In this document: one piece after another, positions 4,353-8,905 of the stretch
Position numbering within the stretch: the stretch's first letter is position 1
Layout: every line of letters begins with the position of its first letter
Assembly: GCF_000524195.1 (NCBI RefSeq)
Contig: NW_020170385.1
Coordinates: 1,988,803 to 2,052,802, forward strand
Direction: 5' to 3'
Source of the DNA: Echinococcus granulosus
Lineage: Eukaryota > Platyhelminthes > Cestoda > Cyclophyllidea > Taeniidae
Length of the DNA: 64,000 nucleotides
Translations under genes and position numbers: made by a program
The notes under the pieces: generated by a model
What the model saw: only the letters and a program-made list of their open reading frames with translations
Database searches by the model: none
Told to the model about the DNA's origin: nothing

Positions 4353-7300
4353 TTACGCTTTGAGAAGCCCGAGAGCTTGATAGTACCACTCGACGGCTCT
4401 CACAAAATTATCCTTAGAGGCTGCGGGACTCTGAATGGGATGCCCCTCGGTGGGGAAACACAGAGTTTGACACATTGTCTCTCCCGCCCTTTCACCTAAG
4501 TGGGCTCGCAGCGCACGCATGAAGGAGGTCCCCTGTAGCAATATTCGAAGTGGATTATGCCTAAGTATTGTGCAAAAAACCTAGACATGGGAATGCTGAA
4601 ATAAGAAGTGGAGGAATTGCAAGACGCACCTGTTCATTCGGTACTCGTTGGTCTTTTGCACCAATACACATAAGAATTGGAACGGACCATTCAGACGAGA
4701 TATGGGTGATTGGGGAGCAGGTGACAAGACGAGTCAGGTGGTTGGGATCAGTGGGACAGAAATTAGAGGCGAAGGTGCAATCACGACAGAGGTGGTCAGG
4801 ATGCTGGGGATCGGCAACCGCGTTGTCAAGCCCAATGCCCGCCTCAGTCCAACACCAGTCGGGGATGTCGGTGGTACTGAGCATGCTCACCAGATTTGTC
4901 ACTGGGTTACGAGCCACTACGGCACGGTAGAGCGACGCGTAGCGACCCGCCAAATGTAGTACCAAAAAGCCGCCGTGGGAGCCTCCAAGCAAAACACACG
5001 GCAGATCAGGCTTGCCCAAATCACAGAGGGCCTCTTCAGTCGCCTAAAAAACAGTGCATTGGTGATACGAAGGAAATGCCTTCGCACATTTATATTGAAA
5101 GCTAACTTGAACACAGTCGGCCACATCGATGACGCCACATTTACCGGGAAGTGAATAGATACTGGAGTTGCCATACCCGACAGAACCACGGTAGTTGACA
5201 AGAAGACAGGCAAAGCCTGCAGCGATATAAGAGGTTAATAGTGGCAACCATTCGGCCGTAAAAGCGGAATGGGGACCGCCATGAGGAAGAACGATTAAGC
5301 CGCGAGTGTTCTCCCAAGTAACCTCCCGATTCGTGAAATCTTAAAAGTGAAGGGAACGAAAGCACATTCCCCAGGGTGATAAATTGAGCAAAAGCAGTTT
5401 CCTTGAATATGAACATACGGGAACCTCTGCAAAATTGCAACGAAGAAGAGTCTAGTAGAGGATAAACGAGAATAGACTCAAAGCGCGTGACACCGAAACG
5501 TGTGTCCTCTGTTTTAGCTGTATGTTCGAGCACTTTCCACTCGAGCCCCTTCAAACAAGGCACTATGGGCTGATCATCGCCAGTTAGACTAAGGCTGAGC
5601 CAGCTAAATGCAATGAAAACAATTTAAAACTGCATCTTACTTTGTTTTAGCAACGCTTCCATTTGAAACTTTTGCAAAGGCGAGGAAATTGGGGACAGCC
5701 GGCGAACTAACATCCACAACTAGTACATCATCATTTACGTCCATTAGTGTGACAGTTCCGTACCCACCACCCTTTTCCAAATTAGCTAGAGGCGATGAAA
5801 AACGAGAAATTCGATCCGACGGGCCTGAATCCAAATCTACATGGATGAGAGCCTTTTCCGCGCCCCAGATGGTTGACAAAACGACTCCTTTGCTATCAGC
5901 TGTCCAGCATCTTTCAGGAACCCCAGCGCAAAGATAAAGACCTTGTTCGGAAAGAAATGCCGACGATGAAATGCAAGCAAAATAGTGTGGAGTGCGATAC
6001 TAGGTGGGGACCGCATACCTGGGAATTCAGACCGATCTTTCACCATAGCAACAAGAGGAATAATTACCTCGGGTTCAGACTGGTCTGGAGGCCAATTTTG
6101 AGCTATCATCGCAAAACACTGCCCATGCGGTCCACCAGCCGGTATTTCAAACCAAATCAGTTTCAACCCATCAGGAGAAAAACGCGGCCACCGTACAGCA
6201 TGATTGTCATGGCTGAGACATTGCAGTGTTGATGTCTCTGAAGGGTAAAACATACCATGAAACAGTCCTTAAATGCCATTCGGAAGTACAAATTATTGGT
6301 CTAACTCACCAAAATCCCAATACATTAATCGAGCTACTCGTTGATAACAGTATTTCAATCCAAGTCGATATGGATTGTTATCGTAGGCAACGAAAACGAT
6401 TCCATTACCATTGGGAGTGTAATGAGGGTCGTCAATGGACCAGTGCTTTGCTTCTGGAACGAGTTGTTCTAAGCAGGACTGAGTGCAAACAACTTCCTCT
6501 GTCTCCAGGTCAAGAAGACAAACAACTGGACGTAAGGTATTACTCAAACCCTCACCCCAGTTTTCCTCAAATATGAAAGGAGATCTTTCGGGAATACTTT
6601 TGGTAACCTAAACGAAATTATGAACACATTAAAGTCATTTAGGCATTTAGATTTAAGGATTCGCTTATCGATACTATAGAACAAATTGTAACAGAAAACC
6701 TAATTTACCAACACTAGTCGTTCATGTATAAGTAGCGCCACCGACCTTAACGAAGATATCACAGAAGCGAGCCAAAACATTTCCAGTACATACTGACATT
6801 AGCTTTAAAGACAACTAGTGTATCGGAACACACCGATTCAGAAGGATCTTTGTCGCCAACGATGCGGGAATATTCTGCTAAATATATTATTTTATTGGGA
6901 TTTGTAGGACAAAATCGGCAAGACGCAAATGGTACTGACGAATCGCCCGACCTATACACCTTCCCATGAGCTGCGGGTAAACTTTTAGCATTTTCAGTTG
7001 GCAATTTGATTGTTTTTAATTTTTTTCCACTCTTTGAACAAAACACATAAACAAATGTCCCAGAAATAGCCGACGAAGCCTTTATTGCCTCTGAATCACC
7101 TGACACACTGCTTGAAGGAGTATATTCAACAAAAACGACACGCAGCGGATCCTGCTCAATGTCCCACAAAAGAGTTTCAGACTTCCCTGTGTACGGGAAA
7201 CAAGAGCTAAAAGATGTCACTGTTCCGAAAGAGGAATACAAAAGCTGTGGTGCTTCAAATCTGTTCCGAAAGAAAATCGAGTATTCCTGATTCATGACCA

Positions 7301-7520
7301 AGAAATCGTTCCGACAGCTGTCAACCTGTTTCCATTTAGAGCAAATGCTATACGTCGTCTTAGTTTCCGAAGAACTTTGCTTTATACGAATTCGAGCCGA
7401 TAGAGGCGTTGGCAAGCAGAAAAAATGGGAAAAAATACGACCAGCCCAGTTTCTGAGATGAGCCCTCTCAACAGCCATGACTAAACAAACCAAAAGCGGG
7501 GAAGTAAGCCTGTCAGGCAT
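4353..7520 (-). CDS. APEH: Acylaminoacyl-peptidase (acylamino-acid-releasing enzyme, S9C)
   Basis: Cytosolic serine peptidase of the prolyl-oligopeptidase family that removes N-acylated residues from short peptides. Exons (minus): 7520-6798, 6607-6310, 6237-6019, 5941-5641, 5603-5425, 5339-5107, 5043-4630, 4532-4353. They join in phase to 849 codons including the stop. N-terminal beta-propeller half: [12 protein letters not shown], then [11 protein letters not shown], then [15 protein letters not shown], matching the human order. The hydrolase half has [11 protein letters not shown] (oxyanion region), [10 protein letters not shown], the nucleophile motif GGSHGG near 5000-4980, [18 protein letters not shown], the Asp in GAKDQRVP and the His in PTEGHPIQ, so the catalytic triad is complete. 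The start is uncertain: ATG at 7520 gives 848 aa and the in-frame ATG at 7478 gives 834, both longer than the human 732. The extra N-terminal residues could be an unrecognised intron or UTR. It lies head-to-head with XBP1. Confidence 0.88.
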
Positions 7521-8097
7521 TATTCGCCTTTGAGGTGACCGACCAATTAAATCGTAACCACTACCATCCTAATTTTGAAGCCAAGATTTAAGAGTACGAT
7601 TAAAGTTGGTAGCAAAAGGGACATAAATGTCACTGGTAAAATGATGAGTATCCCACATAAAATCAGTGTTTAAAACATCTGTGCACAAAAATTCTTTTTA
7701 GGTGATGCTTATAGGGTGACAAAACTAGTATAAGGTGCTACATATAAGTTTTTTAAGTTCATAAAATGCTGATAATATGGATATTGGAGGCTTTTCTAGG
7801 GATACTTGACAGAGAGTCAATGGTTTGCACACTGTTTTGGTTTTTTAGGTTGAATGCAACGTATCTAAGTCGAATGTTTACACGTTTAAATATTTACTTG
7901 CCACTTTGAATAAAAAAGCAAATACATATTTGGTAGTTTCTGGACATTTCCTCAAGGTGGCCACAAAGAATAGTTATCATCTCATTGTTGCTATTCGTGA
8001 GCCAATTTGTACTTCGTCTTTTATAAACTTCTTCATTTATAATTTTGTTTCATGCTTGTTGAAATTGTCAAGGTGGCGGCTATAGTCTAATGACGTA
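7521..8097. promoter_or_regulatory. Divergent APEH / XBP1 intergenic spacer
   Basis: About 580 bases separate the APEH start (minus) from the XBP1 start (plus), so the two promoters are close and may be shared. The only recognisable element is TGACGTAA at 8091-8098, an ACGT-core bZIP/CRE-like sequence touching the XBP1 ATG. Its position inside the presumed 5' UTR makes a promoter role doubtful. No TATA box was identified with confidence. Confidence 0.35.
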
Positions 8098-8905
8098 ATG
8101 GTTGGGAAGCGGACTGCTGTTGTTCTTGCTTCTTATGGTCATGTACCTCCCCTTCCACACAGTGATGCCAGTCGCAAGAGAACTAGGCTAGACTTTTTAA
8201 CTGAAGAGGAGAAGGTACTTAGGAGGTTTGTTGCAACTCTTTTATCTTCATTATTAGGAAACTTTTGAATCGTGAAGCTGCTCAGAAAGCCAGAGATAGG
8301 AAGAAGAATTCCATCCTTCTGATGGAGCAGAGTATTCGTAGTCTTCAGTCGGAGAATCAGTCTCTGCGCCAAGCAATTAGTCTTTTGAAGCACAAGTGTC
8401 AAGAGCAGGAAATGCGACTTAATTCAATCCATTACCAGTTAGGCTTGTCGACAAGTGGCGATCAAACGTTAAAAATTGAGCAGATTGAGCCATCGGAGCC
8501 AGCAGTGCTCTTCCCTCTGCAGCAGGGTGTGGTTCTCTGCGTTCTACTTCTGATCTGCCTCTCTTTTGTCAGCCTAGCTCTGGCTTCGTTCAGTCGGCCT
8601 ATGCTAATGATTTTGGTGTCATTTTTCAAGATGACGTCGTTGCCGATATCTCCTCAGAGGTTACGATTCCATCGCAGTCCACGGAAGACTCTGCCTATGA
8701 GGTAGATATCGCCCCAATTGTGTCTGCTCCTTCATTGTACGCTGAAATTTACAAGTCTTTTGTGGATGAAACTATCGACGTTCCTCTAACACCCTCAAGT
8801 TCCGCTGATAGTATTGATGAAATCCTCAAGTATCTGAGTGATGAAGATTTATCTGGTGTGTTAGATAATGATCTCCCGCCCTCTCTACCAGTGCGCCGCC
8901 ACTGA
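8098..8905 (+). CDS. XBP1: XBP1-like bZIP transcription factor of the unfolded protein response
   Basis: XBP1 is the IRE1 target that activates ER chaperone, lipid and ERAD genes. Exon 1 is 8098-8225; a 32-nt GT-AG intron (8226-8257) splits the basic region at exactly LRR|KLLNR. The bZIP reads RKRTRLDFLTEEEKVLRR, then KLLNREAAQKARDRKK, then a leucine zipper beginning MEQSIRSLQSENQSLRQAI. It matches animal XBP1 (EEKALRRKLKNRVAAQTARDRKK) far better than ATF4 or CREB. The unspliced form ends at 8705 (191 aa) after a hydrophobic stretch, VVLCVLLLICLSFVSLALAS, comparable with the membrane-targeting region of XBP1u. If 8503-8519 is excised, translation enters the +2 frame without a stop up to 8905 (252 aa). 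The new tail is acidic and serine-rich (SIDEILKYLSDEDLSGVLDND), like an activation domain. A possible poly(A) signal AATAAA lies at 9660-9665. Confidence 0.9.
8495..8527 (+). promoter_or_regulatory. IRE1-type unconventional splice element (twin hairpins, 17-nt intron)
   Basis: Two adjacent hairpins with 7-nt loops can be drawn. Hairpin 1: stem 8495-8499/8507-8511 (GGAGC with GCTCT, one G-U pair), loop 8500-8506 CAGCAGT. Hairpin 2: stem 8513-8516/8524-8527 (CCCT with AGGG), loop 8517-8523 CTGCAGC. Both loops fit the IRE1 consensus CNG|CAGN, predicting cuts after 8502 and after 8519 and removal of 17 nt (8503-8519). Since 17 leaves remainder 2 on division by 3, as does the 26-nt animal XBP1 intron, the frame shift is the same type. 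The shifted frame is open to 8905. A weak basal stem is possible between GAGCCA (8487-8492) and TGGTTCTC (8530-8537). The structure is inferred by eye and splicing was not observed. Confidence 0.8.

What the first reader, a model, noticed from the sequence alone, without database searches (positions are those of the whole stretch)
8495..8527. XBP1 homologue with a predicted 17-nt IRE1 intron
Seen: two adjacent hairpins with 7-nt loops CAGCAGT and CTGCAGC, both fitting CNG|CAGN, with perfect or near-perfect stems, placed just after the leucine zipper where animal XBP1 has its IRE1 intron. Cutting removes 8503-8519, only 17 nt. Known: the mammalian intron is 26 nt. Because 17 and 26 give the same remainder on division by three, the same frame switch results, and the new frame runs stop-free for 128 codons. 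The excised piece consists of just the 3' half of loop 1, one stem strand from each hairpin, and the 5' half of loop 2, leaving a single unpaired base between the stems. This may be near the lower limit for this kind of RNA splicing.
Basis: partly seen in the sequence, partly recalled or inferred. Interest (0 to 1): 0.85.

Follow-up and report, generated by a model that had tools for sequence, protein, structure and literature searches.

The report
Tapeworm stress-gene RNA with 17-base intron
This is a tapeworm's version of the XBP1 stress gene, whose messenger RNA very probably loses a tiny 17-base piece when the cell is under protein-folding stress; it is real, but the same 17-base splicing was shown in a related tapeworm in 2025.

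Summary
Window 8098-8905 (+) is XBP1 of an Echinococcus tapeworm: the E. granulosus protein P0003 shares 190 of 191 XBP1u residues, and published E. granulosus xbp1 primers match exactly. Twin 7-nt-loop hairpins (CAGCAGT 8500-8506, CTGCAGC 8517-8523) fit the Ire1 rule CNG|(C/A)NGN. Cutting removes 8503-8519 (17 nt) and turns 191-aa XBP1u into 252-aa XBP1s with 128 new codons. It is the only such pair in the window; 200 shuffles give none with this loop. A codon test supports the length: 21 of 22 flatworm-set proteins that align across the site allow 17 nt, while fish and amphioxus proteins allow 26. In Schistocephalus, two annotated frames fix the DNA and show a compensatory C-G to U-A change in stem 1. 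IRE1 RNase, RtcB and archease matches are in the genome. It is not new: PMC12162102 (June 2025) showed DTT-induced removal of 17 bases from Mesocestoides corti XBP1 and aligned E. multilocularis and S. mansoni. Additions here: one named monogenean also fits 17; so do two unnamed proteins that resemble other invertebrates; flatworm XBP1u keeps a hydrophobic segment but shows no arrest-like C-terminus in 11 tested. No Echinococcus RNA was examined.

The parts
8098..8225 (+). XBP1 coding exon 1 (ATG at 8098)
   Evidence: P0003, named XBP1 of Echinococcus granulosus, is identical over the first 190 of 191 XBP1u residues
8226..8257 (+). ordinary spliceosomal intron, 32 nt, GT...AG
   Evidence: the only GT-AG pair in the stretch scanned that joins the bZIP frame; genomic amplicon of the published Eg-xbp1 primers 380 nt minus 32 = 348, the size printed in PMC5560652
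8206..8390 (+). bZIP domain (residues 37-87), interrupted by the 32-nt intron
   Evidence: PF07716 E 2.4e-8, PF00170 E 6.2e-8, both over cut-off; residue-to-base conversion by hand
8258..8705 (+). exon 2 in the unspliced (XBP1u) frame, stop TAG 8703-8705
8495..8511 (+). hairpin 1 (5' IRE1 site), loop CAGCAGT 8500-8506, predicted cut after 8502
8513..8527 (+). hairpin 2 (3' IRE1 site), loop CTGCAGC 8517-8523, predicted cut after 8519
8503..8519 (+). predicted IRE1-excised intron, 17 nt
   Evidence: same length shown by RT-PCR in Mesocestoides corti
8520..8905 (+). frame opened by the excision (XBP1s C-terminal part), stop TGA 8903-8905
   Evidence: by reading, similar in this frame to other cestode proteins such as P0006 and P0009 (sequences)
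8529..8591 (+). hydrophobic segment of XBP1u (VVLCVLLLICLSFVSLALASF), directly after the cut site
   Evidence: read from the translation, coordinates by hand; a hydrophobic region in Eg-XBP1 is also described in PMC5560652
8480..8540 (+). sub-threshold match to Rfam RF04247, Hac1/Xbp1 intron
   Evidence: 28.8 bits, gathering score 41, E 0.0053

Best explanation
The gene is the Echinococcus orthologue of XBP1. Its mRNA carries two adjacent hairpins just after the leucine zipper. Inferred for this species by homology: under ER stress IRE1 cuts each 7-nt loop after its third base, the 17-nt piece 8503-8519 falls out, and the two exons are joined, most likely by RtcB with archease. The removal shifts the frame and replaces the XBP1u tail, which begins with a hydrophobic segment, by a 128-codon tail giving XBP1s, the active transcription factor. 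Shown here: gene identity, hairpins, frames, the 17-nt register in related proteins, and matches to the enzymes. Shown by others in Mesocestoides corti: removal of 17 bases induced by DTT. Not shown: cutting, ligation or activity in Echinococcus.
For: Coordinates, frames and hairpins. XBP1 identity. The zipper exon has one match in its own genome, itself. Experiment in a relative: PMC12162102, passages. Codon test: allowing loops CNGCNGN, stems of at least 4 and at least 8 nt between the loops, 21 of 34 proteins of the flatworm set allow 17 nt (P0001 and P0003 also 20). An alignment without that pattern finds the site in 22 of 34; the one misfit is P0014, an M. corti entry lacking 7 residues. 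Four of the 21 (P0019, P0024, P0025, P0027) need the looser second loop. Of 120 other proteins, tested with the stricter second loop CNGCAGN, 56 allow only 26 and 16 only 20. In the 21 rows, of 19 columns with three or more residues only three share a two-base codon pattern, and they are loop columns: V/A/E (GN.), L/P/Q/R and Q/P/R/L (both CN.) (row choice is qualified in the full report). Schistocephalus solidus: P0010 (unspliced frame) and P0006 (other frame) together fix the DNA of both hairpins, GAGT-CAGCAGT-ACTC-AT-CCCT-CAGCAGC-AGGG, with C-G replaced by U-A in stem 1. The IRE1 RNase exon keeps RNK and the second His of the human RNKKHH stretch; RtcB in 6 exon matches; archease, last 41 of 136 model positions.
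Against: No RNA data for Echinococcus were examined. The minimum-energy fold of 65 nt is not the twin hairpin and stem 1 falls to probability 0.006 in the 105-nt window. The Rfam match is below its curated cut-off. PMC5560652 amplified this region in E. granulosus and, in the passages read, prints only the unspliced size of 348 bp. At protein level P0001 and P0003 also allow 20 nt, and a first version of the test without a minimum distance between loops also allowed 14 nt in P0002, P0008, P0019 and P0027; in the window's DNA only the 17-nt pair has stems of at least 4.
Confidence: 0.95

Rival explanations
1. The downstream frame is joined by ordinary spliceosomal splicing, as several database gene models have it, and the hairpins are incidental.
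For: By reading, the entries P0001 (E. canadensis) and P0003 (E. granulosus) pass from the unspliced frame into the other frame further downstream, as a predicted intron would do.
Against: The entries differ on where they jump; PMC12162102 says its RT-PCR rejected a canonical intron predicted in this region of M. corti XBP1; the residues at the loop columns are explained by RNA loops.
Confidence: 0.03
2. A different register, e.g. 20 nt as the same test suggests for several other invertebrates, is used in Echinococcus.
For: P0001 and P0003 pass the protein-level test for 20 as well as 17.
Against: In the actual DNA only the 17-nt pair of hairpins has stems of at least 4; M. corti removes 17.
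Confidence: 0.01
3. The second frame is reached by programmed ribosomal frameshifting rather than RNA splicing.
For: The two frames overlap for about 60 codons and both are open.
Against: No slippery site was looked for; the twin IRE1 hairpin and the RT-PCR result in a relative make it unnecessary.
Confidence: 0.01

Closest known systems
Mesocestoides corti XBP1 17-base non-canonical intron (PMC12162102, 2025)
   Same: Tapeworm, XBP1 homologue, 17 bases removed, double stem-loop, frame shift to a longer protein; E. multilocularis and S. mansoni aligned there as conserved (passages and legends read)
   Different: The experiment was in M. corti; the Echinococcus sequence was only compared. Its figures were not visible to me.
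Mammalian XBP1 26-nt IRE1 intron
   Same: Twin 7-nt loops (stated in PMC4891664, passages), position after the zipper (recalled), same remainder on division by three, XBP1u with a hydrophobic region
   Different: 9 nt longer; human XBP1u has an arrest peptide (PMC6624018, abstract start in the listing), while none of 11 flatworm-set unspliced proteins tested shows an arrest-like ending
Candida albicans HAC1 19-nt intron
   Same: Very short IRE1 intron between two hairpins (PMC6222058, passages)
   Different: Fungal HAC1, 19 nt; a different remainder modulo three
Rfam RF04247, bZIP Hac1/Xbp1 intron
   Same: Both loops align to the model loops
   Different: Score 28.8 below the gathering score of 41; several model positions deleted, as one would expect for a shorter intron

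Membership tests
XBP1 (metazoan bZIP, UPR) | bZIP domain related to XBP1 | tested here: met
   PF07716 and PF00170 over cut-off; best homologues named XBP1
XBP1 (metazoan bZIP, UPR) | second overlapping frame that gives a longer protein after a frame switch downstream of the zipper | tested here: met
   191 aa versus 252 aa, 128 new codons
XBP1 (metazoan bZIP, UPR) | activates UPR target genes as XBP1s | not testable with these tools
   needs an expression assay
IRE1 non-conventional intron (Hac1/Xbp1 type) | two stem-loops with 7-nt loops CNG|(C/A)NGN (rule read in PMC8104961, passages, for yeast Ire1) | tested here: met
   CAGCAGT and CTGCAGC on stems of 4-5 bp
IRE1 non-conventional intron (Hac1/Xbp1 type) | stems conserved through compensatory change | tested here: met
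   one base pair only, C-G to U-A, in S. solidus deduced from two frames of the same species, and the same in a deduction that mixes Opisthorchis with Clonorchis
IRE1 non-conventional intron (Hac1/Xbp1 type) | twin hairpins form in the full RNA | tested here: inconclusive
   depends on the flanks used
IRE1 non-conventional intron (Hac1/Xbp1 type) | covariance model of the family at gathering score | tested here: not met
   28.8 against 41 bits; that the cut-off does not suit 17-nt members is inference
IRE1 non-conventional intron (Hac1/Xbp1 type) | stress-induced excision in vivo | not testable with these tools
   shown in M. corti, not looked at in Echinococcus
IRE1 non-conventional intron (Hac1/Xbp1 type) | IRE1 RNase and a ligase in the same genome | tested here: met
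   PF06479 positions 59-126 of 127, RtcB PF01139 in 6 matches, archease PF01951 positions 96-136 of 136

The most novel reading that the evidence does not exclude
In parasitic flatworms the whole XBP1u apparatus has been pared down: the intron sits at a 17-nt floor with at most one or two bases between the stems, and XBP1u keeps a hydrophobic segment directly behind the cut site but has lost the C-terminal ribosome-arrest peptide, so its mRNA must reach IRE1 without the pausing used in mammals. The same 17-nt register may have arisen separately in other invertebrates (P0089, P0099).
Probability: 0.35. Interest if true: 0.45.

Novelty: already known. Interest (0 to 1): 0.27.

Why it matters
[quoted passage not shown] The 17-nt register, seen across the flatworm proteins that keep the site, gives a natural test of how close two IRE1 hairpins may stand. 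The absence of a pausing peptide, noted for E. granulosus in 2017 and extended here to other flatworm proteins, raises a testable question about how the mRNA is brought to IRE1.

Tried and rejected
Spliceosomal origin of the frame switch, a 20-nt register and ribosomal frameshifting were considered and rejected as told under rivals. Unconstrained folding was tried as support and did not help. The Hooks and Griffiths-Jones survey of Hac1/Xbp1 introns (PMC3225973) is not held; I know it only as cited in other papers. A protein search meant to reach free-living flatworm XBP1, which would date the shortening, named none among the 120 best of 1,124 hits that it lists; the rest were not seen. Paper searches bearing on an earlier report of a 17-nt intron in flatworm XBP1 brought up only PMC12162102 in their listings; two searches listed only 20 of 34 and 15 of 1,337 papers. 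The human protein among the hits (P0150) lacks the region and could not serve as the 26-nt control; the catfish entries P0043 and P0044 and amphioxus P0039 allow 26, though under the looser first test they also allowed 23 (all three) and 11 (the two catfish entries).

Of the 34 flatworm-set proteins, 13 lack the motif: P0014 with a 7-residue gap, and 12 with no alignable unspliced-frame stretch. By reading, most of the 12 look like gene models that skip the site or read the other frame; P0023 and P0032 are unclear. For the arrest-peptide count I used 11 of the 21 motif-bearing proteins, leaving out ten chosen by eye, mostly entries that run into the other frame.

Full report
What is there. It lies in a gene at 8098-8905 (+) with a 32-nt ordinary intron at 8226-8257. 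The protein has a bZIP domain, and its closest homologues are named XBP1 of Echinococcus canadensis, Taenia solium and E. granulosus. P0003 (E. granulosus) equals the first 190 of 191 residues of the predicted XBP1u. The Eg-xbp1 primers printed in PMC5560652 (E. granulosus; passages read) match the window exactly, and the genomic distance of 380 minus the 32-nt intron gives their 348-bp product. I take the genome (103.6 Mb, 272 contigs) to be Echinococcus, most likely E. granulosus in the wide sense; the close E. multilocularis is not excluded.

More than chance. In 64 kb on both strands there are 3 hairpins with loop CNGCAGN and a stem of at least 4 pairs (G-U allowed), and only one pair of them with loops starting 15 to 60 nt apart, the one reported; 200 dinucleotide shuffles gave no such pair. 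With the looser loop CNGCNGN, 200 further shuffles gave 0.015 pairs each. Removal of 8503-8519 turns a 191-aa reading frame into one of 252 aa, with 128 codons in the new frame. The Rfam model of Hac1/Xbp1 introns (RF04247) is the best RNA match there but stays below its gathering score, and no family reaches gathering score in the window.

Already published. PMC12162102 (PLoS Pathog, 4 June 2025; passages and legends read) reports that DTT induced removal of 17 bases from XBP1 mRNA in larvae of the tapeworm Mesocestoides corti, seen by RT-PCR, with an amplicon from each condition Sanger-sequenced; that positions essential in humans are conserved; that the intron sequence is highly conserved in E. 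multilocularis and Schistosoma mansoni; and that the aligned region is predicted to form a double stem-loop. [quoted passage not shown] This is the finding, in a related tapeworm, with an Echinococcus sequence in a supplement figure that I could not see.

Independent test of the length. No other flatworm DNA was available, so I asked of each XBP1-like protein whether its residues can be coded by an RNA with a proper loop at each end and stems of at least 4, and at what intron length. For the flatworm set (P0001-P0034) I allowed loops CNGCNGN and asked for at least 8 nt between loops: 21 of 34 fit, all at 17 nt, two of them (P0001, P0003) also at 20. Without the 8-nt minimum, P0002, P0008, P0019 and P0027 also allowed 14, which leaves no room for two stem strands of 4. 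Four of the 21 (P0019, P0024, P0025, P0027) need the looser second loop. An alignment not using the pattern found the site in 22 of 34; the one misfit, P0014, is an M. corti entry lacking 7 residues, in the species where the 17-base excision was shown. Many rows are close relatives, so 21 is not 21 independent cases. The set holds tapeworms, flukes and one named monogenean with the motif, Protopolystoma (names; classes recalled); five of the 21 have no named organism, and of these P0011 is closest to the monogenean Cichlidogyrus (66 percent), whose own entry P0023 lacks the site.

Other animals. Of 120 other proteins, tested with the stricter second loop CNGCAGN, 56 fit 26 only, 16 fit 20 only, 5 fit 29, 4 fit 23, 1 fits 20 or 23, 2 fit 17 and 36 fit none. 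They were not counted by taxon; amphioxus (P0039) is among those at 26, and a clam, a nemertean, a brachiopod and a brittle star among those at 20. The two at 17 (P0089, P0099) have no named organism and are closest to unnamed and non-flatworm entries of the set, so 17 nt may not be confined to flatworms.

RNA constraint seen through protein. In the 21 rows, 19 columns of the block have three or more residues; only three of these share a two-base codon pattern, and they are loop columns: V/A/E after the first cut, L/P/Q/R and Q/P/R/L at the second. Residues as unlike as Gln, Leu, Pro and Arg have CNG (or CNA) in common. The variants R-L-K, Q-P-K and Q-R-K still allow CNG|CNGN, which agrees with the rule CNG|(C/A)NGN measured for yeast Ire1 (PMC8104961, passages). 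The rows were picked with a pattern that itself permits only V/A/E and L/P/Q/R at these columns; the pattern-free alignment shows that it excluded no protein that aligns across the site, other than P0014. Beyond the second loop some rows are entries that have left the unspliced frame, which makes those columns look more variable.

Compensatory change. For Schistocephalus solidus one database protein reads the unspliced frame (P0010) and another reads the other frame across the hairpins (P0006). Together they leave one codon at each position of the hairpins: GAGT-CAGCAGT-ACTC, AT, CCCT-CAGCAGC-AGGG. Against Echinococcus GAGC/GCTC this is C-G replaced by U-A at the loop-closing pair of stem 1, and the excised length is again 17. 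Mixing Opisthorchis (P0021) with Clonorchis (P0031) gives GAGT/ACTC and CCCT/AGGG with loops CTGC(A/C)GA and CGGCAGA; this mixes two genera and is weaker, and the free minimum-energy fold of one such sequence is not the twin hairpin.

Enzymes. One IRE1 RNase match lies at C241:794539, covering positions 59-126 of 127; the exon aligns to human IRE1 with RNK and the second His of RNKKHH kept and the first His replaced by Asn (that these include catalytic residues is recalled). RtcB is found in 6 exon matches on C270 and the end of archease on C92. The zipper exon matches one place in the genome, itself.

Results against. Folding of the single strand does not favour the twin hairpin in 65 nt, and stem probabilities depend on how much flank is folded. 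The Rfam score is below its cut-off. No Echinococcus RNA was examined.

Additions beyond the passages of the paper that I read. XBP1u carries a strongly hydrophobic run directly after the cut (8529-8591 here). None of 11 flatworm-set unspliced proteins has an arrest-like ending (pattern W, 2-6 residues, W, any, P in the last 45), against 82 of 120 other proteins, some of which are spliced forms; the 11 were chosen by eye from 21. The window's XBP1u has no tryptophan at all. PMC5560652 already noted the lack of a pausing domain in Eg-XBP1. How the mRNA then reaches IRE1 is open.

Verdict. A correct and well-read observation; an instance, in a related species, of a splicing event published in 2025. 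I score novelty as already known.

Noticed in passing
P0089 and P0099 (sequences), residues about 143 and 135: Two XBP1-like proteins without a named organism, most like other invertebrate-type entries and not flatworms, also fit a 17-nt intron; if real, the short form is not confined to flatworms.
   Followed up: partly
P0042, P0062, P0067, P0078; also unnamed P0036, P0040, P0045: The codon test gives 20 nt for clam, brittle-star, nemertean and brachiopod XBP1 (groups recalled) and three unnamed proteins; one paper search on such lengths listed nothing that settles it.
   Followed up: partly
window 8592-8705 and P0004, P0008, P0010, P0011, P0015-P0018, P0020-P0022: None of these 11 flatworm-set XBP1u proteins has the W...W.P arrest-like ending that 82 of 120 other XBP1-like proteins have.
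   Followed up: partly
P0001, P0003, P0005, P0006, P0009, P0014, P0026, P0028, P0031: By reading, public entries of flatworm XBP1 skip or misread the IRE1 site, as predicted ordinary introns would do, so several are chimeras of the two frames.
   Followed up: partly
window 6293-6607 (-) and 6759-7568 (-): Upstream on the other strand lies a frame matching the N-terminal domain of acylamino-acid-releasing enzyme (PF19283); the 269-aa frame next to it has no Pfam match and may be its neighbour exon.
   Followed up: no
P0032, Anoplocephala perfoliata: A tapeworm XBP1-like protein with a divergent zipper and no alignable trace of the hairpin-coded residues; a model error or a paralogue.
   Followed up: no
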